A stretch of 64,000 bases of DNA, taken from the NCBI GenBank assembly GCA_019359355.1, contig JAHHHM010000023.1:1-64000 (forward strand). Direction: 5' to 3'. Below the pieces are notes generated by a model, which had not been told where the DNA came from, did no database searches, and saw only the letters and a program-made list of their open reading frames with translations. Of the stretch, positions 2,535 through 26,741 are shown piece after piece (within the stretch, counting starts at the first letter, position 1; the number at the start of each line of letters is the position of its first letter). The position numbers were made by a program, and so were the translations under genes. This DNA is from Microcoleus vaginatus WJT46-NPBG5. GTDB lineage: Bacteria; Cyanobacteriota; Cyanobacteriia; Cyanobacteriales; Oscillatoriaceae.

Positions 2535-4016
2535 TCATTCGGCTGCCGGCATTTCTCGCAGGAAGTAAAAGCAATCATTTTGCCAATCATTTGCTTCCTC
2601 GCGTCCTAAATAGCCGGTTAAGGGTGAAGAAAGCTCGATGAGAACTTCGTGCAATTGTTCTCGATTTAACAGAGGATCGGGAGGAGTGGAGTATACATAT
2701 CCTCCGTGAAGTTGATTAAACACTACTTTCTCAGCTTGGCTTTTTTTCAAGTAATCTTTTACAAATTTGACGAGGTACACTCGAAGTTTAATTTGTTGGA
2801 AAACCTGCTGAATATATTTTTCAACTTCACTATCAGATTTGCCTGGTTTGAGATATTCTTTTAGCTTAAACAAATCCACTGAACCGGGATATTTACTTTG
2901 AAGTTTTACTAACTTTTCCAGGGTTTCCGGGTTAATAATTGCCATATTATGCACCTTTGCGGCGTCTTCGAGTTGTGGAGTCGGCTCACCAGGGCCGATA
3001 ATTAATTTAGCTGTTTTCTTCAGCAATTGTTCGTCTTTTAGGCGTAGCGTTCCCAAATTCAGCAGTTGCACGGCTGTATCATTGGGAATTTTTCTGCCGG
3101 CTTTACACTCGCCAACCAACGCATAGGGTTTTGAGCAGAATAAATCTAAGCCGCCGGCACCGCCTCTATGGGCGTAGTCAATCGTAAATCCTAGAAATTC
3201 CAAGCTATTTCGCACAGCAATTTCAAAGTCTGTGCCGGCTTGATAATTACTCTTGCCAACATCTTCTTCTTTACTGCGATTACCTAATTGAGCAATGGTA
3301 TCTATCCAAGCTAGATTTGGGTCAGGTTGCGCTTTTGGTGAAGCTTCAGACCAACCCAAAAAGATTTTGATTTCTTGATCAAGTGCTTTGGCTGCTGGAT
3401 TATTAAGAGAAATCTGCTCAACTTGAGCCTGCAAAGCCTCTAAACCGCTATCGGGAAAGTCTTCTCCTGCTAATAAAAGCGCTTTCCGCTTATTAAAACT
3501 AACCTCAGAAACGATAGGGGTATCGCTCTGACTGCCCATCGTTATAATATCTTCTGACTGAGTAGGCCAATAGAAATATCCGGGTTCTGTTGGGACATTA
3601 ACGGTGCAAGGATTCGATAAACGATAAACGCGCAAAATCAAAAGTTTCAGAACCTTGTACTGTTCAAAGATATGTTCTAAAGCAGTTAAATTCCAAACAG
3701 TTGACTTGGCAATGTTAGCTAAACGATGCTTTTGATCTGGATTAATCCGCCACTGAAATTCACAACGTGCCCAGGTTTTAAGCTGGATGGGATGCTTTTC
3801 ATATTGAGCAAATGAACTTCTCGCCTGAGTTAAATATTCAGGCTGATAATATTGTTCTAGACTGAGATTATCGGGAAGCGTTTGACTCGGATAAAGCCAC
3901 AATTCCTGATTATCTGGGATATACTGTCTGAATGGCACAACAATGAGCTTGCCTAAACTCAGCATTTCCACATCAAAAGCCGGCAGTTGAATCCCTTTAA
4001 TAATCTGAACTGTCAT
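2535..4016 (-). CDS. PD-(D/E)XK nuclease-like protein (DUF1802-type N-terminus)
   Basis: This 493-residue protein is the last gene of a three-gene operon. Its N-terminal half (about 1-140) resembles the cyanobacterial DUF1802 family, a recollection-based assignment. Residues about 258-345 look like a restriction-endonuclease fold: Glu265 in a TDFE helix, Asp291 in GGLDLF, and Glu303-x-Lys305 in the GECK strand, which is the E-D-ExK pattern of PD-(D/E)XK/Mrr-type nucleases. The C-terminal part is helical and charged. The ATG overlaps the ATPase stop by 4 nt, indicating translational coupling. Nuclease activity is inferred from the motif only. Alternatives are a structural DNA-binding role or RNA cleavage. 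No signal peptide or membrane segment is visible. Confidence 0.75.
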   Translation of the reverse strand: MTVQIIKGIQLPAFDVEMLSLGKLIVVPFRQYIPDNQELWLYPSQTLPDNLSLEQYYQPEYLTQARSSFAQYEKHPIQLKTWARCEFQWRINPDQKHRLANIAKSTVWNLTALEHIFEQYKVLKLLILRVYRLSNPCTVNVPTEPGYFYWPTQSEDIITMGSQSDTPIVSEVSFNKRKALLLAGEDFPDSGLEALQAQVEQISLNNPAAKALDQEIKIFLGWSEASPKAQPDPNLAWIDTIAQLGNRSKEEDVGKSNYQAGTDFEIAVRNSLEFLGFTIDYAHRGGAGGLDLFCSKPYALVGECKAGRKIPNDTAVQLLNLGTLRLKDEQLLKKTAKLIIGPGEPTPQLEDAAKVHNMAIINPETLEKLVKLQSKYPGSVDLFKLKEYLKPGKSDSEVEKYIQQVFQQIKLRVYLVKFVKDYLKKSQAEKVVFNQLHGGYVYSTPPDPLLNREQLHEVLIELSSPLTGYLGREEANDWQNDCFYFLREMPAAE

Positions 4017-5845
4017 GTTACAGTGCCGCCCTCGCTCAGAATTTCACGGATGAGCCGGTTATCCGCAGCCAGTTTGAGTTCTTTGACAAAATTTGAAACT
4101 TCCTCTTTTGTAAACCCGTAGTTTTCAGCTTCTTCATACATTGTATGAATCGCTGCTAAAGGATTAATTTCATCTTTCTTCAAAACAACAACCTCACCCC
4201 CTTGTTGCTGGACAAGCTGCTGTTCAAGTTCTTTAGCTTTTCTCCAACTTTTGGGAAGGGGAGTAGAGCGCACTAAACAACCGCGAGTAATCCCATACTT
4301 GCCGTAGTCTAGCAGTTTCTTCATCGCCGCAGTCAAGGTGGCGGCCGTCTGTGTTTCACAAATTCTGACACCTATCTTTACATTTTTTTGTTCGGTGGAA
4401 TTAGAGCCAGAGATTGTCAAATGGAGGTCATGAGACTTCGCTTTAATAGACTCAACTTTTTGAATGACTAAATTTTCGATAGTTTCTTCTGGCAACATTT
4501 TCATTGCACAGGCAACTATTGCCGCTAACTGATCATCATTTTGCTCAGGGGCAGAAGTTCGGCCTAACAATTCGTTATAAGCATCCGAAAATTCTTTACG
4601 TTTCTTTTCTTCTGCGTTCAAAGATGGGGCAACTGACCCTCCGATTTCCACTGAATCGAATTTTTCAGTACACCATTTCATCAGAGAACGAACACCGGCT
4701 CCCTTACTGGCAATTCCTTTTATTTCATCTTGATCGAAAGGATATAAAAAAGGGTAAGAATCGGGATTTAATTTCTTTTCAGAATGAAACCAATCTAACC
4801 TCAATTTTACAAGTTCTATCATCTGCTCAGCCGTAGGTGGCTTTGTAGAGACAGACCATTGGCCCACCCGATCTGGGATTCCACTTCCCATTTGCTCGAT
4901 TTCCCGCCATCTATCGCTCATCACGCAGCAAAGGATGATAACGTTGCTGCATTGAAAGTAGATTTTATCAATACAGCTTGCTACGATTTGAGCGGCGCTA
5001 TCTCCACAATCAGCACTGACATTCGGCTGGTCTAATTGATCAAAACAAATCACGACAGGTCGTGAGGCAACGCTAGCGAGCTTACAAATTTGCTGGATAA
5101 CCCAAATAGATCTCGCATCTTGCTCTTGCCGTGAAAACTCTGGTAAGCCTCTTTGTCGAGTATCCGGGTGATCAATACCTTGAATCCAAGCCATGCCAAC
5201 CTGAGCAATGGGGGAAGTTTTGAAGAGTAAAAACAAAACTGCTTTCAAAAAATTAGAATTCAGGTCAGATTGATTTTCTAGAATGGCTTCAACTAGCTCA
5301 TCAACCAGTTCATACCTTTGGGCTGGAGTGTGATTTTGGAGGATGTATTGCCTGAGTTGTTCAGGATGCTCACATTTTTCAAGATAAGGCTGGTACTTTT
5401 CTTCAAATTCCGTTCCTTTAAGAGTGGCAACCATAGCTGCTGCTAACTGTTGCCATTGTGTGACTCCCCTAACATCTTTGTGATCAAAAAAACTGTTTGA
5501 TAGATGGAAGCGCACGTGGGAGTCAATGCGATTAGCATCAGTAAATTGAGGGATGTAGGCAAATACTGCGCCTCCTTCCCTCTCAAGGGTTTTCCAAAGC
5601 CGGTGGATTACATGACTTTTGCCAGTGCCTCGATCACCTTTGATGGCAATTCCGATTTTGTCTGAATATCTTTTGCGAACCTCGGAAATGGCTTGATATA
5701 TTGTTTGATCAACGTGCTGATTGAGGTTAAGCAAATCAGTGACTACATTACCCCAAACTTCATCTGCACTGATGATTGGTTTTAATTTGAAAGGGTTTGG
5801 CCCTTCCTTCCGTGCTTCTTCAAATAATGTGTATGGATCTGTCAT
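4013..5845 (-). CDS. AAA-type P-loop ATPase, operon partner of the nuclease-like protein
   Basis: The 610-residue protein has a Walker A motif GDRGTGKS at 70-77, a Walker B block VVICFDQLDQ at 264-273 with Asp269 and Asp272, and a sensor-1-like strand near 301-311. The sequence between Walker A and B is long, as in ORC/STAND-like AAA proteins. A separate C-terminal domain (about 430-600) contains a KIGVRI strand and a GCLVRS segment, both conserved in the paralogue at 7750-9669. The order of elements suggests an NTP-driven switch or loader acting with the nuclease-like protein. It starts 17 nt after the winged-helix gene and overlaps the nuclease gene by 4 nt. I do not recognise it as a named family member, so its function is unassigned. 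Confidence 0.8.
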   Translation of the reverse strand: MTDPYTLFEEARKEGPNPFKLKPIISADEVWGNVVTDLLNLNQHVDQTIYQAISEVRKRYSDKIGIAIKGDRGTGKSHVIHRLWKTLEREGGAVFAYIPQFTDANRIDSHVRFHLSNSFFDHKDVRGVTQWQQLAAAMVATLKGTEFEEKYQPYLEKCEHPEQLRQYILQNHTPAQRYELVDELVEAILENQSDLNSNFLKAVLFLLFKTSPIAQVGMAWIQGIDHPDTRQRGLPEFSRQEQDARSIWVIQQICKLASVASRPVVICFDQLDQPNVSADCGDSAAQIVASCIDKIYFQCSNVIILCCVMSDRWREIEQMGSGIPDRVGQWSVSTKPPTAEQMIELVKLRLDWFHSEKKLNPDSYPFLYPFDQDEIKGIASKGAGVRSLMKWCTEKFDSVEIGGSVAPSLNAEEKKRKEFSDAYNELLGRTSAPEQNDDQLAAIVACAMKMLPEETIENLVIQKVESIKAKSHDLHLTISGSNSTEQKNVKIGVRICETQTAATLTAAMKKLLDYGKYGITRGCLVRSTPLPKSWRKAKELEQQLVQQQGGEVVVLKKDEINPLAAIHTMYEEAENYGFTKEEVSNFVKELKLAADNRLIREILSEGGTVT

Positions 5846-5862
5846 GATTTTCTCTTTTTATC

Positions 5863-6552
5863 TCAAGATTGTTGACTGGCGAAAAATAAAAGTCCTCTCA
5901 CGTCATCGATGATAGAGTCGCGTTTTTGATCGTCTGTTGCGCCACGCGCTTCGCCGCTTTGGAGATAGAACAATTGTTCACCCTGCATTTTCATCACCCA
6001 CTCATTAAATTTTTCACGTCCCACTCGCTCGCCTAGTTCACGGCGCAGATGCCAGATGGGAACAAGTCCGCTGTAGTTGTGGCCTTTATCCAGCTTTTCA
6101 AATAAGGCAAGGACTTCAGGCTTAAATTTCTCATAAGATGCAATTTCAGCAGCCAGCTTACCTTGAGATGCCGGCACACTTACCGCACCATCGATTTGAC
6201 GAATCCACTTCAGCAACGCATTAGCAACTCTGCTACCAACTTGAGTGCCGTCAAACTCAAATTCAGCGCTTTTTAATCCTTCCGCTAGGCTTTGCCGGCC
6301 TTCATTGGTTAAAGAAATCTGCGTGACTCGGTTTTTATTAGCAATCTCAATCGCTTTAGATTCTTCTAATTCCGTCAATATATTTTTATAGTCTTGACTT
6401 GTCTCACCTGTGCGTACGATGCGTTTTGTCAAATCACCTTTCTTAACTCCTGCTTCAGATCCTCCCAAATCCCACAAAGTCAGGAGCAGACGAGTTCTTG
6501 CTTGGGATTGAAAATCCTTTGAATCCTTATTCTTGCCGGCTTTAGATGACAT
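5863..6552 (-). CDS. Winged-helix-like protein, first gene of the ATPase-nuclease operon
   Basis: A protein of about 229 residues. The N-terminal part (about 20-95) reads as a winged helix-turn-helix: helices, a TGETSQDY turn, then a beta-wing-like VTQISLTNEGRQSL segment. The C-terminal part (about 110-229) is a separate helical domain with a conserved-looking PIWHLRRELGERVGR stretch. The ATG at 6552 is chosen over the in-frame TTG at 6558 because AGGA sits 8-9 nt upstream of it. It lies just downstream of a perfect inverted repeat (6567-6601) overlapping a possible -10 box, so it may repress its own operon. It may also be the DNA-recognition subunit of the complex. Neither role can be proved from sequence. 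Confidence 0.7.
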   Translation of the reverse strand: MSSKAGKNKDSKDFQSQARTRLLLTLWDLGGSEAGVKKGDLTKRIVRTGETSQDYKNILTELEESKAIEIANKNRVTQISLTNEGRQSLAEGLKSAEFEFDGTQVGSRVANALLKWIRQIDGAVSVPASQGKLAAEIASYEKFKPEVLALFEKLDKGHNYSGLVPIWHLRRELGERVGREKFNEWVMKMQGEQLFYLQSGEARGATDDQKRDSIIDDVRGLLFFASQQS

Positions 6553-6566
6553 ATTCAAAATTCCTG

Positions 6567-6601
6567 ATAACTTGGATACCGTCTCACACTCTCCAAGTTA
6601 T
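6567..6601 (-). promoter_or_regulatory. Operator-like inverted repeat upstream of the winged-helix operon
   Basis: Two perfect 10-bp arms, ATAACTTGGA (6567-6576) and TCCAAGTTAT (6592-6601), are separated by 15 bp. On the minus strand the distal arm abuts a TACTAT sequence that could serve as the -10 box. Additional CCAAGT half-sites occur near 6629 and 6711. The position, 15 nt before the ATG at 6552, fits an operator for autoregulation. An RNA hairpin in the leader is the alternative. Confidence 0.5.
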
Positions 6602-6813: not shown

Positions 6814-7605
6814 TTAATTCAACTCTCCCCGCAAAACTGTTACTGCTTGACCGCCTAAATAGACGCGTTCGCCGGCTAAACGTACCCGCACAACGCCACC
6901 CCGCGCGGATGCCTGATAAGCGACAAACTCATTTTTATGTAATCGCTGACTCCAAAAAGGTGCGAGACAGCAATGTGCAGAACCCGTCACCGGATCTTCA
7001 TTAATTCCGGCTGCCGGCGCAAAAAAGCGTGAGACAAAATCATACTCATGGGATGCGGAAACACAAGTCACAATAATTCCGCGCACCGGCAGAGTTTTTA
7101 ATAATACAAAATCTGGCTGCATTTGCCGCAGCGCTTGTTCAGAGTCAACCTCAACCAAGTAATCGAATTTATTCTTCCCAACATACTTCAACTTAACGCC
7201 TAACGCTTCCTCTAAAAGCGCAGGTGCGGATGCCGGTTCAGGCGCGTTTTTGGGAAAATTCAACTCAATCCAATTTCCCTGGCGTTCTGCTGTTAGCAAA
7301 CCGCTACGGGTGTAAAATTTTGCCTGTGCTGCTGCGTCTAAATACTGCAATTCCCACAACACATGAGCGCTTGCCAGTGTGGCGTGTCCACATAAATCCA
7401 CTTCGACTGCCGGCGTAAACCAGCGCAAATTATAACCGTCTTCTTGAGGATATAAAAACGCGGTTTCAGACAAATTCATTTCGGCGGCAACATTCTGCAT
7501 CCACTTTTCATCTGCCGGTTCATTTAAAACACAAACCGCTGCCGGATTACCGGAAAACCGCTTATTAGTAAACGCATCCACCTGAATCAGTGTTTTTCCC
7601 ATCAT
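6814..7605 (-). CDS. PhzF-family isomerase-like protein
   Basis: PhzF-family proteins have two diaminopimelate-epimerase-like halves. PhzF itself isomerises an intermediate of phenazine synthesis, but most bacterial members have unknown substrates. The 263-residue protein carries the family marks: FSGNPAAVC at 17-25, SET with the general base Glu47, DLCGHATLA at 70-78, and a C-terminal DPVTGSAHC loop. The start is an ATG-ATG pair; either is possible, and a G-rich stretch lies just upstream. It sits between the two paralogous ATPase genes, 145 nt downstream of the second and ended by its own terminator, so it may be co-transcribed with that ATPase. No phenazine pathway genes are nearby. Confidence 0.88.
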   Translation of the reverse strand: MMGKTLIQVDAFTNKRFSGNPAAVCVLNEPADEKWMQNVAAEMNLSETAFLYPQEDGYNLRWFTPAVEVDLCGHATLASAHVLWELQYLDAAAQAKFYTRSGLLTAERQGNWIELNFPKNAPEPASAPALLEEALGVKLKYVGKNKFDYLVEVDSEQALRQMQPDFVLLKTLPVRGIIVTCVSASHEYDFVSRFFAPAAGINEDPVTGSAHCCLAPFWSQRLHKNEFVAYQASARGGVVRVRLAGERVYLGGQAVTVLRGELN

Positions 7606-7749: not shown

Positions 7750-9669
7750 TCAGGACTTAGTAAAGTCTCTCATCAAATCCCGCTGATCTGCCGGCTCCAC
7801 TATATCTGCAAACACTTCCTTATTCATTTCTGTTTCAAGAATAACTTCAACGGTAACTTGAGGAGTTTGTCCTCTCACAATTCCTCGAATTAAAGGATTA
7901 TCTGCCGCCAACCTTCTTTGAGCAATAAACTCAAAAATTTCTGCCTCACTAAACTGATCTGCTTGCCGATGCCGGTGAAGTGACCAAATTGCTATCAACG
8001 GCTTAATGTCTTCTAATTTCAAGTTTACCCATTTTCCCCCTAATTCAACTGTAAGCTGGGTGAGATAATGATAAGCTTGCCAATGAGTGGGAATTTCTCG
8101 CTCTGAAGCGCGAACTAAACAACCGCAACTCAGATCAAAAGTTTCGTATTGCGTTAAGCGTTTTAATCCTGCCGCCACACTTTGAGCGCGAGTATCCTGA
8201 AGCACAGCCACGCCAATTTTGACAGGATTTTCATTTTGCGTGCCGGTGATTATAAATTGAATGTATTCTTGATTCGCTGATTTAGGTTTTACCTCGCCGG
8301 CAACAGCTTCAATTTTTACACCTTCCACAGTCTGACCGATTAATGTTTGAAAGCTAAAGTTAATTGCCTCAGCCAGCAAAGAATTATTACTCAATTCCTC
8401 GCCAAGTTCAATACTCATCGCTTGCTCAAAAGCTTGTTCCACTTTTTCCAAAGGATCAAGTTCAACAGGGCGAAAATTTTCTGCACACCACTCTAAAACT
8501 TCTCGTACTGTCAGTTTCTCTCGACCCAAAGATTGTAATTGACCGCTATCAAAGGGATAAACCGACGTAGGCGGGATTAAGTTTTTAGATGTATAAAAAA
8601 TTTGCAGCCAGTCACTTACTAACCCAACAATTTTATCTCCACTAATATTATTTAATTGAATGACTTCTTTTTTACCTGAAAAATAAGTCGCAAATCCAGC
8701 CGGCAAAGTTAGAATTTTCTCTGTCCAGGTTGCCGGTGTCATTGTCGAAAGAATCACAACCCCATGATTCAGGCGAGTCATCTGAAGGCTATCCCACAAA
8801 CGCCTGATTAAGCTTGCAACCACCCGTTCCCGCTTCAAATTGTTCTCGCTGTTTTCTGTCGAATCCAAGTCATCAAAACAAATAATCAGCGGATAATAAT
8901 CACTCATTAAATGCAGAATTTGTACCACCGTATCCCAAGCGGCAGATTCTCGTTCCTCCCGGCTGTGATTCGGTAATCCCAACTCATCTGCTTTCCAGGG
9001 TGCTAGGGATTTGCCGGCTAACCATTTAATTGCAAAAGGTGCTTGTGCGTTGCAAAGTGTCCACACTAATGCTCGAACAATATCCGGTTCAGGCACATCA
9101 GGTTGTGTTTTGAAAAAAGCTTCTGTTAACTGGTTCACCCAGTTTTGATTTTTTGCGTGGGAATTTCCCGCTAGTTTTCTCACCAATTCGGGCGCAGTAA
9201 ACGCTTTTGCCATCGGAGTCAGCGCTTTTAAAGCTTCGTTAATCATCACCGTTGCCAGTTGCTGGCACTGTAAAACCCCTTGGCTTCCTTGGCGTCTCAA
9301 GCTATCAACGAGAAGTTGCAGAAATTGGTAGCGAATTAGATTAACTTCAGTAAATTGATGAGCGTTAGCATAAATAAATAAGCCACTGCCTTGAACTTGG
9401 AGGCGATGGCGAATGCGATGAATCAGGTGACTTTTCCCCGTACCACTTTCACCAGAAATCGCCATTGATATGACTTTAGTTTGTCCAGTTCTCGCTTGCT
9501 CAATCGCTTGAAAAATAGCATCAGAAGCGTGATCATTAAGGGTCGTAATATCCGGGAATATTAGACTCCAAATCTCTGAATCTTTGACAGATGCCGGGTT
9601 ATTAAATGGGTTGTGAGTGGCGATGGCAGTATTAAGCGCTTTAATCGGAGAGATAAAATCACAAGCCAT
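7750..9669 (-). CDS. AAA-type P-loop ATPase, paralogue of the operon ATPase
   Basis: Numbered from the upstream TTG at 9693, the Walker A motif GESGTGKS falls at 81-88 and the Walker B block LIICFDDLDS at 269-278. The ATG at 9669 (subtract eight) is preferred because the resulting N-terminus lines up with that of the first ATPase. Both proteins share the whole layout: a short N-terminal segment ending near a Glu/Lys-rich motif and Trp, the P-loop, the YANAHQF/YIPQFTD-type strand, the long insert, and a C-terminal domain with KIGV, GCLVRA and RLAADNPLIR (RLIREIL in the other). It lacks an adjacent nuclease gene. Its role is unknown; it could cooperate with or substitute for the first ATPase. 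Confidence 0.78.
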   Translation of the reverse strand: MACDFISPIKALNTAIATHNPFNNPASVKDSEIWSLIFPDITTLNDHASDAIFQAIEQARTGQTKVISMAISGESGTGKSHLIHRIRHRLQVQGSGLFIYANAHQFTEVNLIRYQFLQLLVDSLRRQGSQGVLQCQQLATVMINEALKALTPMAKAFTAPELVRKLAGNSHAKNQNWVNQLTEAFFKTQPDVPEPDIVRALVWTLCNAQAPFAIKWLAGKSLAPWKADELGLPNHSREERESAAWDTVVQILHLMSDYYPLIICFDDLDSTENSENNLKRERVVASLIRRLWDSLQMTRLNHGVVILSTMTPATWTEKILTLPAGFATYFSGKKEVIQLNNISGDKIVGLVSDWLQIFYTSKNLIPPTSVYPFDSGQLQSLGREKLTVREVLEWCAENFRPVELDPLEKVEQAFEQAMSIELGEELSNNSLLAEAINFSFQTLIGQTVEGVKIEAVAGEVKPKSANQEYIQFIITGTQNENPVKIGVAVLQDTRAQSVAAGLKRLTQYETFDLSCGCLVRASEREIPTHWQAYHYLTQLTVELGGKWVNLKLEDIKPLIAIWSLHRHRQADQFSEAEIFEFIAQRRLAADNPLIRGIVRGQTPQVTVEVILETEMNKEVFADIVEPADQRDLMRDFTKS

Positions 9670-10260
9670 AGTATATTGCTTTAAGAGGGTCAATAAAGTT
9701 GCTAGCTGAAGCGGCGGCGCTATCTAACTGTTTTACCGCCGGTTTTATCAAGATTGTCGCTTGCCCCAACTCGAAATAGATTTGCACCCTTGTCGATCAG
9801 TTGCTGATGACATCGCACAGCAGGATAGCTCTATAGTTGCCGCCTGTTCATCAGCTTTCATGGATTTGCATGATCATCAAGCCAAAAAAGCATGGAAGTA
9901 GCGACACAGGGAGTTACCTAAAATTTAGCACATTAAATTTATATCTACCCACTTCTCTAGTCTATTGCAAAGTAAATATACAAATTATACGCACCTTACT
10001 CTCTGGAGTTTGAAAGGGCTAAAGCTAAAAGAGCAAAGGTGGAAAGATGTTAGCAGGGCAGCCAGAAACAAAGCAAATTAATTCACGTCATCTCAAGAAA
10101 AACTTTGGATTTTTGGATATAAAGTCTCCTTGAGAAGACGGGATGAAATATCAATTAGTTGCCAACTAGCGTGTGATTGCCTTAACCCGACTATGAGAAA
10201 AGTTAGTTTTTTAAATAATAAATATGGTAAAGCCGGCACTGCCGGCCCTACTTTGCTTAC
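9670..10260. other. Intergenic region upstream of the second ATPase
   Basis: About 590 nt without a supported gene. It contains the promoter of the ATPase gene and the region downstream of mdh. No tRNA-like fold, strong terminator or protein-like frame was found by eye. Confidence 0.5.
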
Positions 10261-13936: not shown

Positions 13937-14701
13937 TTATGATTGAGGCTTTTTCGGATCAACCGGCTGACCGTCGCGGAACACTCCCTGGAAGCGCTGA
14001 CCGTTGGCCTTGATCATTACCCCTCTGCCATGTGGGACTGCGCCGCGTAACTCTCCTTCATAACGATCCTTGTTTGGGTATCTGCAACTCCCTTTACCAT
14101 CAAGCTCGTTATTGTAGAACTGCGCTTCGCAGCGGGTGCCATTTGCGTGGGTGAATACCCCCCTACCAAAAATAGCGCCGGCGAAGTATTCTCCCTCAAA
14201 GCGAGAGCCGTTGGCGAAGAAAAATCTCCCTGGGCCGACCGGCTGAAAACTCACCTCGCCGGTCGGTTTGCCTTCAGCGTCAACAATTACTAAGAGATTA
14301 AGCCGTCCTTCAAAGCGATCACCATTGGGTAAAAAGAAGTTTCCCCTTGTGATATTACCATCGCGGAATTCTCCCTCATAGCGGGAATCATCAGCTGCGA
14401 GGTAAACTCCTCTTCCATTAGCCCTACCACCGCGCCACTGCCCCTCATATCGGTCACCATTAGGATATACAAATATACCGTATCCGTTCGGCAGGTCATT
14501 GGCCAACCCTCCTACATAGTTAGCACCATTTGAATAATTGCATTTCACAGCGCCGGCAGAAGGATCACCTTGGCAGCGAGGAGGTTGATAATTATTTTCT
14601 TCTTGGGCTACTGATGGAGCGCTATGAGTGGCATAACCGACAATATCTAAAAGAAACGCTAGTAAAATTGTCATCCCAAGTTTCTTAATTGAGTTAGGCA
14701 T
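13937..14701 (-). CDS. Exported MORN-repeat protein, copy 1
   Basis: A 254-residue protein with an N-terminal signal sequence (Lys residues, then a hydrophobic segment to about residue 32, with an AQE-type cleavage region). About eight MORN units of the YEGxxxxGxxxGxG type follow, for example YVGGLANDLPNGYG and RYEGEFRDG. MORN repeats form beta-hairpin arrays that can bind lipids or proteins; a specific role cannot be assigned. It is the tandem copy of 14979-15743, with the same length and the same repeat order, and parts of the upstream regions are also similar. The C-terminus ends in DPKKPQS. Confidence 0.85.
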   Translation of the reverse strand: MPNSIKKLGMTILLAFLLDIVGYATHSAPSVAQEENNYQPPRCQGDPSAGAVKCNYSNGANYVGGLANDLPNGYGIFVYPNGDRYEGQWRGGRANGRGVYLAADDSRYEGEFRDGNITRGNFFLPNGDRFEGRLNLLVIVDAEGKPTGEVSFQPVGPGRFFFANGSRFEGEYFAGAIFGRGVFTHANGTRCEAQFYNNELDGKGSCRYPNKDRYEGELRGAVPHGRGVMIKANGQRFQGVFRDGQPVDPKKPQS

Positions 14702-14978
14702 TAGGTAAAGTCCTCCAAAGAGTTGTTAGTTGTTATCGGTCAAGTTGGTATAAGCACGCTCATGACTGCTACTTGTAATGCGCCGTGGACTGCCTATACT
14801 TTGTTTTAAGTTAGTCAGGAGAAAGCAAAAAACCCAATACTCTCTTTTTTAATTTTAATTTTTAATTCGGGCGAGCTGGTGAAAATAATTCAACTTTATA
14901 GATACCGTCATAAATCACAGTATCCTCCTATCTAGTAAGGTTGAGAGCAAAAGCGAATTTAGTAGCCGGCATTCTTAA

Positions 14979-15743
14979 TTATTTAGGCTTTTTCGGATCA
15001 ATCGGCTGACCGTCGCGGAACATTCCCTGGTAGCGCTGACCGTTAGCCTTGATCATTACGCCTCTACCATGTGGTACTGCGCGGCGTAACTCTCCTTCAT
15101 AACGATCCTTATTTGGGTATCTACAGCTCCCTTTACCATCGAGTTCTTCATTGTAGAACTGCGCTTCACAGCGGGTGCCATCTGTGTGGGTGAATACTCC
15201 TCTACCAAAAACAGTGCCCGCCAAGTATTCTCCCTCGAAGCGAGAGCCATTGGCGAAGAAAAATTTTCCTTGCCCTATTGGCTGAAAAGTGCCGCCGGCA
15301 AGCTCGCCTTGATTGCCAATAAGTAGTATAAGACCAACGGTTCCTTCAAAGCGATCGCCATTAGAATAGAAGACTTTTCCTGTTTTCATAACACCTTCGC
15401 GGAAGACTCCCTCGAAGCGTGTATCATCACCAGCAAGGTATACTCCGGAACCATGAGGTATACCGTTGCGCCACTCTCCCTCATATCGGTCATATCCTGA
15501 TTCCCCCTCAAACACAAATATGCCTCTGCCGTTGGGGCGGCCATTAGCCCAGCCTCCTACATACTTTTGACCATTAAAGTAGTAACAAGTCACAGGGCCG
15601 GTGCTGGGATTTCCTTTGCAACGGGGCCAAAAGTTATTTTGTTGTTGGGCTACTGATGGGGCGCTATCAGTGGCATAACCGGCAATCTCAAAGAGCAACG
15701 CCGCTACGATCATCATCCCAACTTTCTTAATTGAGTGAGGCAT
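14979..15743 (-). CDS. Exported MORN-repeat protein, copy 2
   Basis: This is the upstream paralogue of the preceding protein, also 254 residues, with a signal sequence ending near the AQQQN segment and the same series of MORN hairpins. The copies differ most in the N-terminal 60 residues and around the central loop (about 130-150, where copy 2 has ILLIGNQGELAGG). They are nearly identical in the C-terminal third. Two cysteines early in the mature part (near 42 and 53) and two in the CEAQF/GSCRYP segments are shared and could form disulfides in the periplasm. Both genes have their own upstream region, so they may be separate transcripts. Confidence 0.85.
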   Translation of the reverse strand: MPHSIKKVGMMIVAALLFEIAGYATDSAPSVAQQQNNFWPRCKGNPSTGPVTCYYFNGQKYVGGWANGRPNGRGIFVFEGESGYDRYEGEWRNGIPHGSGVYLAGDDTRFEGVFREGVMKTGKVFYSNGDRFEGTVGLILLIGNQGELAGGTFQPIGQGKFFFANGSRFEGEYLAGTVFGRGVFTHTDGTRCEAQFYNEELDGKGSCRYPNKDRYEGELRRAVPHGRGVMIKANGQRYQGMFRDGQPIDPKKPK

Positions 15744-16267: not shown

Positions 16268-17602
16268 CTAAGAGGTTGCTCCTGGTGCCGGTGCCGGCGC
16301 GACGGGTTTTTCCCCAATCGATTTAGCAACCTCTATGCCCTTCTCCTCTAAAATCACGATCGGCTCTGCACCTTCATTCATTTCTACCCGTTTAACGAGT
16401 ACCTGGCCATTAGAGAGCCGTTGCCCAACTTTGACATACCGACTCGCGGCTTCATCCGGTGCTTTCACAATAATCTGAGTCTCTCTACCCACTTGGACAA
16501 CGCCTGTGACTTCCACTGCTCTGGCAATGTCTGGTTGCGGTGGTGGGGGTGCTGCCGGCGCGGCGGGTACTGGGGGAGGCGGGGGAAGCTGAGGGCCAAT
16601 TGCCACCGGCAAATCTGGCAGTCCCGGCACTTGCCGACTCGGTGTGCTGGGGAGTTTAGGTGGTGTAGGCGGTGTAGGTGGTTTTGGGGCCGAGGCTACG
16701 GCAGCAGGGGGCTTAGGAGGCAGTTGAGGGCCAATTGCCACCGGCAAATCTGGCAGTCCCGGCACTTGCCGACTCGGCGTGCTGGGTAGTCTAGGTGGTG
16801 TAGGTGGCTTCGCTTGCGCTGTATTTGCGGGGCTTGTGCGACCGTTCTGCCCTGTATTTGCGGGGCTTGTGCGACCGTTCTGCCCTGTATTTGCGGGACT
16901 TGTGCGACCGTTCTGCCCTGTATTTGCGGGGCTTGTGCGACCGTTCTGCCCTGTATTTGCGGGGCTTGTGCGACCGTTCTGCCCTGTATTTGCGGGGCTT
17001 GTGCGACCGTTTTGATTATTGGGGAGATTTGGCCCAATAGCAATCGGTAAATCGGGCAAACTAGGAACCTGTCTGCTTTGTGTGCCTGGAAGTTTGGGAA
17101 CTCCGGCAACGTTTCGAGGATTTCCTGCAACGTTTCTGCGATTGGGTGGCCGAAGGTTAATTGGGTTCGGCACATTTGGCACAAATGGGATACCGTCTGT
17201 TGGCCGTTCTAAAGCTGGCAGCGTGGGTAGCCTCGGCACGTTTTGCCCACCGGCTGCGGCGGTTTTTGGCGGTGTCAGCGGCTGAACGGCAATACCGGCA
17301 AATGGATTTGTCCGCCCTGTCTGCACCAGCTTCGTCCGTTGTTCTGCGGAGGTTGACGGTGTGATGCCGGGTGGTGGGCCAAGAGCGGGTGATTTTTCCG
17401 CTATGGGCGGCTTGGTGGTTGCCGGTGCTTGAGCCGTGGGGGCTGGAGACTGCCCTGGAGTTGCTGCTGGTGTTGTTGCTGCTGGGGTGGCAGCCGGTGA
17501 TGGCGAAGGAGTCGTGCTGCTTTGATTTTCTCCAGGTTGCCCGCACCCACTCAGCAAAAGTACAAGGATTCCTAAAGACACCCTCATTGATGGTCTACGC
17601 AT
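16268..17602 (-). CDS. Proline-rich lipoprotein with 11-residue tandem repeats, PilP-like C-terminus
   Basis: The 444-residue protein begins with a lipoprotein signal (hydrophobic segment, then LLLSGCG lipobox with Cys near 20). A Pro/Ala/Thr-rich linker follows, then a TGRTNPFAGI segment as seen in pilus-assembly PilP-type proteins. After this come six copies of an 11-residue NTGQNGRTSPA unit and three related blocks containing SRQVPGLPDLPVAIGP. The C-terminus (about 355-430) is a beta-rich domain with VTGVVQVG and VKVGQRLSNGQVLVKRV, which again recalls PilP. A role in type IV pilus assembly is an inference. The repetitive middle is probably a flexible spacer in the periplasm. Confidence 0.65.
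   Translation of the reverse strand: MRRPSMRVSLGILVLLLSGCGQPGENQSSTTPSPSPAATPAATTPAATPGQSPAPTAQAPATTKPPIAEKSPALGPPPGITPSTSAEQRTKLVQTGRTNPFAGIAVQPLTPPKTAAAGGQNVPRLPTLPALERPTDGIPFVPNVPNPINLRPPNRRNVAGNPRNVAGVPKLPGTQSRQVPSLPDLPIAIGPNLPNNQNGRTSPANTGQNGRTSPANTGQNGRTSPANTGQNGRTSPANTGQNGRTSPANTGQNGRTSPANTAQAKPPTPPRLPSTPSRQVPGLPDLPVAIGPQLPPKPPAAVASAPKPPTPPTPPKLPSTPSRQVPGLPDLPVAIGPQLPPPPPVPAAPAAPPPPQPDIARAVEVTGVVQVGRETQIIVKAPDEAASRYVKVGQRLSNGQVLVKRVEMNEGAEPIVILEEKGIEVAKSIGEKPVAPAPAPGATS
16821..17018. repeat. Six tandem 33-bp repeats inside the lipoprotein gene
   Basis: The unit beginning GTATTTGCGGGGCTTG recurs at 16821, 16854, 16887, 16920, 16953 and 16986. Copies differ at very few positions (an A for G in copy 3, and a change at the end of copy 6). 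The unit length is a multiple of three, so the array adds 11 residues per copy and keeps other frames open too. Confidence 0.95.
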
Positions 17603-25491: not shown

Positions 25492-26741
25492 GTGAGGGTA
25501 AGAAGGTTAGCCGATTTTGCGATCTCGATACTCGCGCTTATAACTTTAGCAGGCTGTAGGACGAAAGACATAATCCCTGCTCAACAAGTTGTTACACTTG
25601 CCGGTTGGCAAAGCAATCTCAGCGAACACCGGCTTCTCAAACAGCTCATTCAGAAATTTGAAGAAAACTATCCTCATATTAAAGTTAAGTATGAAGTGAT
25701 TAATAGTGAGTATATGTCTGTTATTTATACTCGCTTAGCCGGGAAAACTGCACCTGATGTCTTTTATTTAGAGGCATTTGAAGCGCCTAGATTAATGAAA
25801 GAGGGGGCGTTAGAATCTCTGAATACTTATATAACAGCAGATTTTAATATTGCCGATTTTAAGAAACGGGTACTCGATGCTTTTAGGAATGAGGGTAAAA
25901 TTTATGGCATTCCGAAGGATTTTTCTACTTTAGCTCTTTTTTATAATAAACAAGCTTTTAAAGAAGCCGGTATTTCCCAAGCACCTAAAACTTGGGAGGA
26001 GTTGATGAAATATTCCCAAAGGTTGACGGTTGATCAAAATCAAGATGGCAAAATTGATCGGTATGGTTTTGGAGTATATCCAGAATTGGCACGTCAATAT
26101 TTTATGATTAAAGCTTGTGGGGGACGGTTAACGGATCAAGCGGGTAAAGCTGCTTTTGCCACAGATGCCGGTTTAAAAGGTCTTCAATTTGTCATTGTCA
26201 GTATCGAAAAGATCAGTCTTCTGCACAAACTTCAGATGTTGGGGCAAGTTGGGGCGCTGAAATGCTTGGCGTTGGAAAAGCGGCGATGGTTATTGAAGGA
26301 TTGTGGGCAATTCCTAATTTAAAAGATACGTTTACAGCGTTAGATTATGCTGTTGCAGAAGAGCCGGCAGTTTGTGGTAAAAAAGGCACAATGGCTTTTA
26401 CGGTTGCCTATGCGATGAATAAAGATGCTAAAAATAAACCGGCAGGTTGGGAGTTAATTTCTTTCTTAACCGGCACAGAAGCGATGAAAATCTCAGCAAG
26501 TACAGGATTCGCCTTACCTAGCCGTCAATCTCTTATGCAAACGTTCAAACAAAATCCTCAAGATATTCCGTTTATTACGAATGCCGGTTATGCAACCATT
26601 TGGCAAGGCGGTGAGAGGCTTGGCAAAATTGTTACCAGTTTTAATAATCAATTTATCAGTGCAATGATTGGGCAAGAATCTTTATCACAAGCTATGAACG
26701 AATCTCAAAAAGAAGCAAACAAAGATTGTATAGCTCCCTAA
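25492..26741 (+). pseudogene. Sugar ABC importer substrate-binding lipoprotein, frameshifted
   Basis: The first frame (25492-26322) starts with a lipoprotein signal (LITLAGC) and reads as a family-1 extracellular solute-binding protein: TLAGWQSN, PHIKVKYEV, RLAGKTAPDVFYLE, GIPKDFSTLALFYNK. Near 26196-26199 the reading shifts: after GLQFVI the protein-like sequence continues in another frame (QYRKDQSSAQ..., then GAEMLGVGKAAMVIEGLWAIP) to 26741. A sequence GATCAG reduced to GTCAG, that is a single-base loss, would explain the shift. Both halves are otherwise well conserved, so the lesion is recent or a sequencing error. The two permease genes downstream are also broken, which favours real decay. 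The substrate is probably an oligosaccharide. Confidence 0.85.

What the first reader, a model, noticed from the sequence alone, without database searches (positions are those of the whole stretch)
2535..6601. Operator, winged-helix protein, AAA ATPase and PD-(D/E)XK protein form a coupled operon
Seen: three minus-strand genes in one tight unit (17 nt gap, then 4 nt overlap), a P-loop ATPase with Walker A 70-77 and Walker B Asp269, and a downstream protein with E265, D291, E303-x-K305 in a restriction-like fold. Known: DNA-recognition protein plus ATPase plus nuclease is the logic of many defence and DNA-processing systems. Inferred: this may be an undescribed cyanobacterial antiviral or DNA-repair module. 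I cannot match it to a named system such as restriction types I-IV, BREX or DISARM.
Basis: partly seen in the sequence, partly recalled or inferred. Interest (0 to 1): 0.75.

Follow-up and report, generated by a model that had tools for sequence, protein, structure and literature searches.

The report
Likely cyanobacterial defence cassette, swappable nuclease
Three neighbouring genes found together across filamentous cyanobacteria encode a DNA-binding protein, an ATP-driven motor and a DNA cutter that look like a virus-defence machine, and its cutting part is repeatedly swapped for other versions while the rest stays put.

Summary
Window 2535-6558 (minus strand) holds a tandem winged-helix protein (WH), an Orc/Cdc6-like AAA+ ATPase and a nuclease (NUC) with E265, D291, E303 and K305 invariant in 41 of 41 aligned sequences. 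The NUC model has an ASCH-like domain (Pfam DUF1802), a FokI/Nt.BspD6I-like PD-(D/E)XK domain and a C-terminal winged helix. The order WH-ATPase-NUC holds in 39 of 41 and 74 of 80 loci; 7 of the 8 exceptions are cut by a contig end. The 'operator' is weak.

The gene set is not new: a 2024 comparative-genomics paper (PMC10853773) predicts it, in one sentence, as an anti-invader system. Five paper searches turned up no experiment on it.

What I did not find in print: a preferred chromosomal slot (mutM-mdh) where cassettes multiply, decay or are replaced; a co-varying WH-ATPase-ASCH platform; and a catalytic block (NUC about 240-430) that shuffles independently, seen as a clean swap in a same-genus genome. 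Most likely it is modification-dependent or invader-triggered restriction (about 0.6). Defence is untested, and a coarse test found no enrichment of known defence genes in the flanks.

The parts
5863..6558 (-). WH: tandem winged-helix protein (likely start ATG at 6552); first wHTH about residues 18-96 (6271-6507), second about 136-231 (5866-6153)
   Evidence: 39-row alignment; weak support for the first wHTH: profile positions 32-102 to ribosomal protein eS10, E 0.33, Pfam DUF6293_C winged helix E 0.0081. The second wHTH is read from the sequence pattern; no model of WH was made
4013..5845 (-). ATP1: Orc/Cdc6/TnsC-like AAA+ ATPase; AAA+ and lid to about residue 402 (4640-5845); Walker A 5615-5638; Walker B D269 5039-5041, followed by natural Gln270
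   Evidence: best VIA matches Z 14.0 (7jgr chain G, an ORC-Cdc6-DNA entry) and TnsC Z 13.5
4181..4537 (-). ATP1 residues 437-555: alpha-beta-beta-beta-alpha-beta-alpha-beta domain with the order of a PD-(D/E)XK core but no E-x-K (K-I-G-V instead): possible inactive REase domain
   Evidence: secondary structure of the model and alignment; not supported by hhalign and barely tested by the structure search
2535..4016 (-). NUC: ASCH-like (DUF1802) + PD-(D/E)XK + winged-helix nuclease, 493 aa
3522..4016 (-). NUC residues 1-165: DUF1802 = ASCH-like (PUA-fold) domain
   Evidence: Pfam DUF1802 E 7.5e-17, residues 11-178; Foldseek ZmASCH E 3.7e-4, prob 1.00; VIA Z 8.4, rmsd 4.0, 129 aligned
2799..3329 (-). 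NUC residues 230-406: FokI/Nt.BspD6I-like PD-(D/E)XK domain; E265 3222-3224, D291 3144-3146, E303 3108-3110, K305 3102-3104
2538..2795 (-). NUC residues 408-493: C-terminal winged helix (ORC/Cdc6-type)
   Evidence: VIA Z 10.7, rmsd 2.2, 84 aligned
2682..3281 (-). Exchangeable block: NUC residues about 246-445 (probably reaching further towards the C-terminus), replaced by a divergent version in same-genus genome G292
7750..9693 (-). ATP2: second, solo Orc/Cdc6-like ATPase (647 aa, Walker A GESGTGKS, Walker B FDDLD), present between mdh and a PhzF-like gene (6814-7605) in the window, G292, G293 and G294, and before PhzF in G297
   Evidence: dN/dS 0.13 and 0.15
6567..6601 (.). Putative operator: 10-bp inverted repeat with 15-bp spacer just upstream of WH
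   Evidence: weak

Best explanation
An ATP-dependent restriction-type defence cassette. The tandem-wHTH protein (WH) binds DNA and helps place the complex (inferred). The Orc/Cdc6-like AAA+ ATPase, which may carry an inactive REase domain, assembles around or along DNA and holds the nuclease (inferred from fold). The nuclease reads a modified or otherwise foreign feature of invader DNA through its ASCH-like domain (inferred) and cuts with its FokI-like PD-(D/E)XK centre (active-site residues shown, activity inferred). WH, ATPase and the ASCH half of NUC vary together as one platform, while the catalytic block (residues about 240-430) is exchanged between platforms (shown by sequence comparison). 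About half of the cassettes tested sit in one chromosomal slot after mutM-mdh, where they multiply in tandem, decay or are replaced (shown for the loci read).
For: Invariant catalytic residues and fold; Orc/Cdc6/TnsC-like ATPase; triad order in 39 of 41 and 74 of 80 loci; NUC in 49 of 292 genomes of the phylum sample, 43 with at least 285 aligned residues and 6 with fragments only; two or three neighbouring divergent cassettes in 5 genomes; catalytic-block swap inside an otherwise closely similar region; ATPase-WH-ASCH identities correlate at 0.68-0.79 against 0.16-0.29 for the catalytic block in 108 cassettes, and at 0.58-0.75 against 0.17-0.33 without the 17 Gln cassettes, with the drop at residues about 225-255; remnants in 3 of 5 slots that lack a cassette and a NACHT NTPase in a fourth; a related wHTH + ATPase family beside an exonuclease-PD-(D/E)XK-FtsK fusion matching SspH and mad8 models; the same prediction in PMC10853773.
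Against: No enrichment of known defence genes in flanking proteins against control regions of the same genomes. No NUC copies in the plasmid, phage or viral collections. The slot lies among housekeeping genes and the genes show ordinary purifying selection. Nothing shows that this ASCH-like domain reads modified DNA: in the passages seen, ASCH as a DNA-modification reader is a prediction, and known ASCH proteins include an amidohydrolase (PMC11037411) and an RNase (a reference title in PMC7641849). The REase-like reading of the ATPase C-terminus failed a profile test against NUC. No activity has been shown.
Confidence: 0.6

Rival explanations
1. A DNA-repair or chromosome-maintenance module: the AAA+ ring and wHTH protein bring an ASCH-guided nuclease to damaged or modified host DNA.
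For: mutM (a DNA glycosylase) or mdh lies upstream on the same strand in 30 of 59 named loci with at least 5.5 kb upstream; purifying selection; no plasmid, phage or viral copies of NUC.
Against: No NUC match in 243 of 292 genomes; decayed copies; divergent duplicates; swapped catalytic block. mutM and mdh are kept where the cassette is lost.
Confidence: 0.12
2. A suicide (abortive-infection) or addiction nuclease: the ATPase and WH hold the nuclease in check and infection releases it on host DNA or RNA.
For: An AAA+ controller beside a nuclease without a modification gene in the triad; RdrA is among the ATPase matches (Z 12.7, rmsd 5.8).
Against: The architecture does not separate this from restriction; the catalytic block changes independently of its would-be controller, the opposite of what a toxin and its inhibitor should show.
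Confidence: 0.15
3. A domesticated Tn7-like TnsA-TnsC pair used for site-specific DNA cutting or rearrangement.
For: PD-(D/E)XK plus winged helix with a TnsC-like ATPase (TnsC Z 13.5); TnsA is recalled to have the same two-domain plan.
Against: In the neighbourhoods of 41 loci only the triad is shared by more than 14 loci, and the one transposon-like cluster noticed (5 loci) looks like a TnpB-type gene (recalled), not a TnsB; no TnsB search was made. No copies in the plasmid, phage or viral collections. Top structure rows are FokI-like; TnsA is not among the rows shown (inconclusive).
Confidence: 0.06

Closest known systems
Predicted Orc/Cdc6 + ASCH-REase + DndG-like triple-wHTH system (PMC10853773, Nucleic Acids Res 2024; section 22 read in full, passages elsewhere)
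   Same: Same three components: Orc/Cdc6 ATPase, REase fused to ASCH, separate multi-wHTH protein; proposed anti-invader role.
   Different: Given there in one sentence of the main text, which does not hold the word cyanobacteria. The slot, tandem arrays, catalytic-block swapping and Walker B Gln class are not in what I read; its figures and supplements I did not see. I read two wHTH domains in WH; a third was not tested. The paper calls the neighbourhoods mobile; here about half sit in one slot.
HerA/FtsK-capture systems with Orc/Cdc6 (same paper)
   Same: Related wHTH + Orc/Cdc6-type ATPase; the sister family found here with an exonuclease-PD-(D/E)XK-FtsK fusion fits that description.
   Different: No FtsK/HerA domain in the window triad.
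Modification-dependent (Type IV) restriction enzymes such as EVE-HNH, SRA-HNH and wH-nuclease fusions (abstract starts and passages)
   Same: PUA-fold reader or winged helix fused to a nuclease.
   Different: Adds an Orc/Cdc6 ATPase and a separate wHTH protein; base specificity unknown.
Tn7 TnsA-TnsC
   Same: PD-(D/E)XK plus winged helix working with an Orc-like AAA+ (TnsA part recalled).
   Different: No transposase in the triad; extra ASCH-like domain.
SspABCDE
   Same: Orc/Cdc6 ATPase plus triple-wHTH protein (passages of PMC10853773).
   Different: No phosphorothioation enzymes in the triad.

Membership tests
Predicted Orc/Cdc6 + ASCH-REase + DndG-like system | Orc/Cdc6-clade AAA+ ATPase | tested here: met
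   VIA Z 14.0, rmsd 3.5, 236 aligned to chain G of 7jgr (ORC-Cdc6-DNA); next rows are ORC, Cdc6 and TnsC
Predicted Orc/Cdc6 + ASCH-REase + DndG-like system | REase fused to an ASCH domain in one protein | tested here: met
   catalytic residues invariant in 41 of 41
Predicted Orc/Cdc6 + ASCH-REase + DndG-like system | Separate DndG-like triple-wHTH protein | tested here: inconclusive
   Two wHTH domains read from sequence; no model was made for WH and no DndG comparison was run
Predicted Orc/Cdc6 + ASCH-REase + DndG-like system | Inactive REase between AAA+ and C-terminal wHTH of the ATPase (stated in the paper for the HerA/FtsK-linked members; it calls these ATPases related) | tested here: inconclusive
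   Strand/helix order fits in the model and E-x-K is missing; hhalign with NUC gave 0.21% probability
Predicted Orc/Cdc6 + ASCH-REase + DndG-like system | Mobile gene neighbourhood | tested here: inconclusive
   mutM or mdh upstream in 30 of 59 named loci; no NUC in plasmids, phages or viral contigs; but cassettes and blocks do get exchanged
HerA/FtsK-capture system | HerA/FtsK translocase | tested here: not met
   No such Pfam match in the triad, ATP2 or the three other neighbours scanned
Type IV restriction | Cuts modified, not unmodified, DNA | not testable with these tools
   needs biochemistry
Tn7-like transposon | TnsB-type transposase with the nuclease and ATPase | tested here: inconclusive
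   No such gene seen among shared neighbourhood clusters of 41 loci, but the clusters were not all annotated and no TnsB search was made
Named PADLOC systems (2023 models) | Significant match of the core proteins | tested here: not met
   Best match of the three core genes E 0.0056, none for NUC

The most novel reading that the evidence does not exclude
A modular immune cassette in a preferred chromosomal slot: a co-evolving wHTH/Orc-like ATPase/ASCH platform is fitted with interchangeable REase blocks by recombination inside one gene, and a class of ATPases with a natural Walker B Glu-to-Gln change works as an ATP-locked scaffold.
Probability: 0.35. Interest if true: 0.72.

Novelty: new member of a known kind. 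Interest (0 to 1): 0.5.

Why it matters
It gives a predicted but, as far as my five paper searches show, untested anti-invader system a concrete, widespread home (249 nuclease relatives in the named-genome scan) and a testable oddity: the catalytic block is what recombines, while reader, motor and DNA-binding protein stay together. It marks a slot (after mutM-mdh, with phosphoglucose isomerase in the same locus in 16 of the 30 named loci of that slot) in which to look for further conflict genes, and offers natural chimeras for finding which part sets the target.

Tried and rejected
Operator as a conserved regulatory site: rejected. Named defence system by PADLOC or NCBIfam: none over a cut-off; the best NCBIfam match of ATP1 is ATPase_Sll1717, 19.9 bits against a cut-off of 75. 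Defence-island test: 150 of 228 flanking proteins from 20 loci against 150 of 296 proteins from one control region in each of the same 20 genomes. At E 1e-15, 43 families were matched in the flanks (25 listed; top: mad3 in 5 members, four Cas12f/Cas12u models and Csx1 in 3 each) and 60 in the controls (25 listed; top: mad3 3, mad2 2, then methyltransferases and others 1 each): no enrichment, and a coarse test. Profile comparison between the domains (hhalign, 21 pairs): nothing above 2.04% probability, so the inactive-REase reading rests on the model's strand order. PDB sequence searches with the three profiles found no convincing relative. The first genome-contig scan, with the ATPase, found nothing. 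PHROGs: no match for the triad; one weak match for ATP2, E 0.0012. TnsA is not among the structure rows shown, which excludes nothing.

Caveats on counts: named loci (L095-L174) and handle loci (L035-L074, L191-L198) overlap in part (for example L194 and L103 appear to be one contig). For the pairwise work I dropped NUC proteins under 400 aa and identical NUC copies (122 left) and kept the 108 with an ATPase over 500 aa and a WH over 150 aa. The nine pairs were picked because they disagree between modules. Identity correlations do not correct for shared ancestry, and the catalytic block is the most conserved module on average (0.53 against 0.43-0.51), which lowers its cluster number at a fixed cut; the within-gene steps do not depend on this. 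Two near-full NUC copies (G207, G282) were not fetched as cassette loci. L169, titled Planctomycetaceae, is nearly identical to cyanobacterial L167 in the ATPase tree and is probably a misbinned contig.
Full report
What is there. One search confirms three minus-strand genes in one unit: WH (5863-6558), ATP1 (4013-5845) and NUC (2535-4016), with a 17-nt gap and a 4-nt overlap. Upstream lie a PhzF-like gene (6814-7605) and a second ATPase, ATP2 (7750-9693), a paralogue of ATP1 (31% identity over ATP1 residues 17-603). Pfam gives DUF1802 for NUC residues 11-178 (E 7.5e-17) and only sub-threshold AAA matches for ATP1. PADLOC, NCBIfam and PHROGs have no match to the triad over a cut-off or at better than E 3e-4.

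Conservation of the unit. In a phylum sample NUC matches in 49 of 292 genomes; 43 have at least 285 aligned residues and 6 only fragments. WH profile matches occur in 55 and ATPase profile matches in 79 of the same 292; both numbers include distant families and fragments. Of 41 loci read (the window and 40 fetched), 39 carry WH, ATPase and NUC in this order; the other two are cut by the contig start. The ATPase ORF is split in three of the 39 (L040, L047, L056). A named-genome scan found 249 relatives of NUC; 80 were kept, all cyanobacterial by title except one MAG titled Planctomycetaceae. Of these 80, 74 have the full order, five are cut by contig ends and one (L161) has a short ATPase and no detected WH.

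Folds. The NUC model (pLDDT 87.6, pTM 0.59) splits into three parts: residues 1-165 match ASCH (Foldseek E 3.7e-4 to ZmASCH; VIA Z 8.4, rmsd 4.0, 129 aligned), 230-406 match Nt.BspD6I (Z 13.8, rmsd 3.1, 171 aligned) and FokI (Z 12.8, rmsd 3.5, 146 aligned), and 408-493 match the ORC/Cdc6 winged helix (Z 10.7, rmsd 2.2, 84 aligned). E265, D291, E303 and K305 are invariant in 41 of 41. The ATP1 model (pLDDT 88.7, pTM 0.65) matches Cdc6/ORC (Z 14.0, rmsd 3.5, 236 aligned) and TnsC (Z 13.5, rmsd 4.5, 265 aligned) up to residue 402. Its C-terminal part has the strand order of a PD-(D/E)XK core with K-I-G-V where E-x-K would be; that rests on the model and alignment only, since hhalign did not support it. 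DUF1802 also occurs alone as a protein of about 190-240 aa: the domain, free or fused, was found in 18 of 20 relatives and in 2 of 14 control genomes.

Two ATPase classes. The window's ATP1 has CFDQ at Walker B where most have CFDE. In 108 complete cassettes 88 carry Glu, 17 Gln, 1 Asp and 2 were not scored. On the tree, ATP1 belongs to a strongly supported group of 13 rows, 12 of them Gln; the other 5 Gln rows lie elsewhere. ATP2 belongs to a separate group found before PhzF in the five genomes of the window's family whose region was read (window, G292, G293, G294, G297); it is intact and under purifying selection in the window's genus.

The slot. In the window the order is mutM, mdh, ATP2, PhzF, WH, ATP1, NUC (mutM and mdh by Pfam). 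In 30 of 59 named loci with at least 5.5 kb upstream of WH, mutM or mdh lies upstream on the same strand; 16 of these 30 also show phosphoglucose isomerase (pgi) in the locus. So about half use this slot and half do not. In G294 and G297, of the window's family, the region after PhzF holds two and three cassettes with Glu-type ATPases instead of the window's one Gln-type cassette. Five genomes in all show two or three neighbouring cassettes; a sixth (L155) has a second NUC alone. Eight genomes of family f6 without an intact cassette were examined. Five keep mutM, mdh and pgi on one stretch: three of these hold short NUC or WH remnants (L219, L221, L222), one a NACHT-domain NTPase (L220), one two other ORFs that look like oxidoreductases (L223; my reading, not searched). 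In two of the other three, mutM and mdh lie apart, and in the third no mdh match was found. Against a single slot: the remnants of G245 and G127 lie away from mutM.

Module exchange. Against same-genus genome G293, 150-bp windows are 85-99% identical, except 65% at the end of the alignment and 73% in one partly intergenic window. Against G292 identity is similar except for window 2551-3300, which falls to 43-71%, with 77-91% in the next 600 bases. This is NUC residues about 246-445 and probably further; dS is 2.08 there, 0.36 in residues 1-235 and 0.96 in 450-493, against 0.23, 0.23 and 0.12 for G293. Nine discordant pairs were compared along the DNA, this one included: five show the catalytic block changed on a kept platform, three show ATPase and the start of NUC changed between a kept WH and a kept catalytic block, and one shares the catalytic block while the rest has diverged. 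Over 108 cassettes the pairwise identities of ATPase, WH and NUC 1-235 correlate at 0.68-0.79, while NUC 246-445 correlates with them at 0.16-0.29 (permutation maxima 0.12-0.17); without the 17 Gln cassettes the values are 0.58-0.75 and 0.17-0.33. The drop lies at residues about 225-255. At 60% identity there are 30 ATPase, 30 WH, 45 ASCH-half and 14 catalytic-block clusters, and the commonest catalytic cluster occurs with 17 ATPase clusters. These are identities, not a phylogenetic test; the sharp steps in closely related DNA are the stronger evidence.

Kin systems. ATPase and WH relatives form a second family of loci with a wHTH protein (about 270-330 aa) and one or two ATPases (about 650-715 aa). 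In 7 of the 13 such loci read (L075-L084, L087, L088, L094) an 840-930 aa protein follows; the three scanned (L077, L081, L082) are an RNase D-like exonuclease, a PD-(D/E)XK domain and an FtsK translocase with matches to SspH and mad8. The window's own genome has one such locus without the large protein (L075). In one genome (L086) our WH stands next to a PLD-SNF2 helicase instead of the ATPase and NUC. The second wHTH domain also occurs in six viral contigs; of two such proteins scanned, one matches a minor head protein family. A malate dehydrogenase with a C-terminal extension matching the WH profile was seen in L149.

Literature. I made five paper searches. DUF1802 occurs in one paper, on soil gene networks (listing only). 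[quoted passage not shown] PMC11037411 and PMC7641849 (passages only) treat ASCH as a predicted, not shown, reader of modified DNA. PMC12839542 and PMC12458937 (passages) do not describe this triad in what I saw. Figures and supplements were not open to me, so finer descriptions may exist.

Reading. The triad fits the 2024 prediction and works most plausibly as restriction-type defence. For: conflict-type dynamics, kin systems and fold logic. Against: no enrichment of known defence genes in the flanks, no copies in the mobile-element collections, and no biochemical evidence. The part that seems new is the exchange pattern, not the gene set.

Noticed in passing
L075 7724-13033 (window's own genome, contig 4): Sister locus: wHTH protein (323 aa) and two tandem Orc-like ATPases (710, 682 aa), with a ParA/HSDR_N-like fusion and a ParB/SAP-like gene on the other strand.
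   Followed up: partly
L086 7657-11876: WH of this family (strong match) followed by a 1097-aa PLD-SNF2 helicase instead of ATPase and NUC: a single case.
   Followed up: partly
L077, L078, L081-L084, L088: wHTH + ATPase followed by an 840-930 aa protein; the three scanned (L077, L081, L082) are RNase D-like exonuclease + PD-(D/E)XK + FtsK fusions.
   Followed up: partly
L175-L180: Second wHTH domain of WH found in viral contigs; the L178 protein matches a minor head protein family, the L175 protein matches nothing.
   Followed up: partly
L149 3364-4614: Malate dehydrogenase with a C-terminal extension matching the WH profile, upstream of a cassette.
   Followed up: no
L220 7663-10845: NACHT-domain NTPase in the mdh-pgi slot in place of the cassette.
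   Followed up: partly
L193 14447-15034 (macro domain by Pfam); L194 17667-18245 (similar start of sequence, not scanned): A macro-domain protein directly downstream of the tandem cassettes.
   Followed up: no
window 16268-17602: Protein with tandem GQNGRTSPANT-type repeats and proline-rich stretches; no Pfam match.
   Followed up: no
window 13937-15743: Two adjacent, similar 254-aa proteins; the one scanned has MORN repeats.
   Followed up: no
window 25492-26741: Sugar-binding-protein-like gene (my reading, not searched) that appears split into two overlapping ORFs, possibly a frameshift.
   Followed up: no
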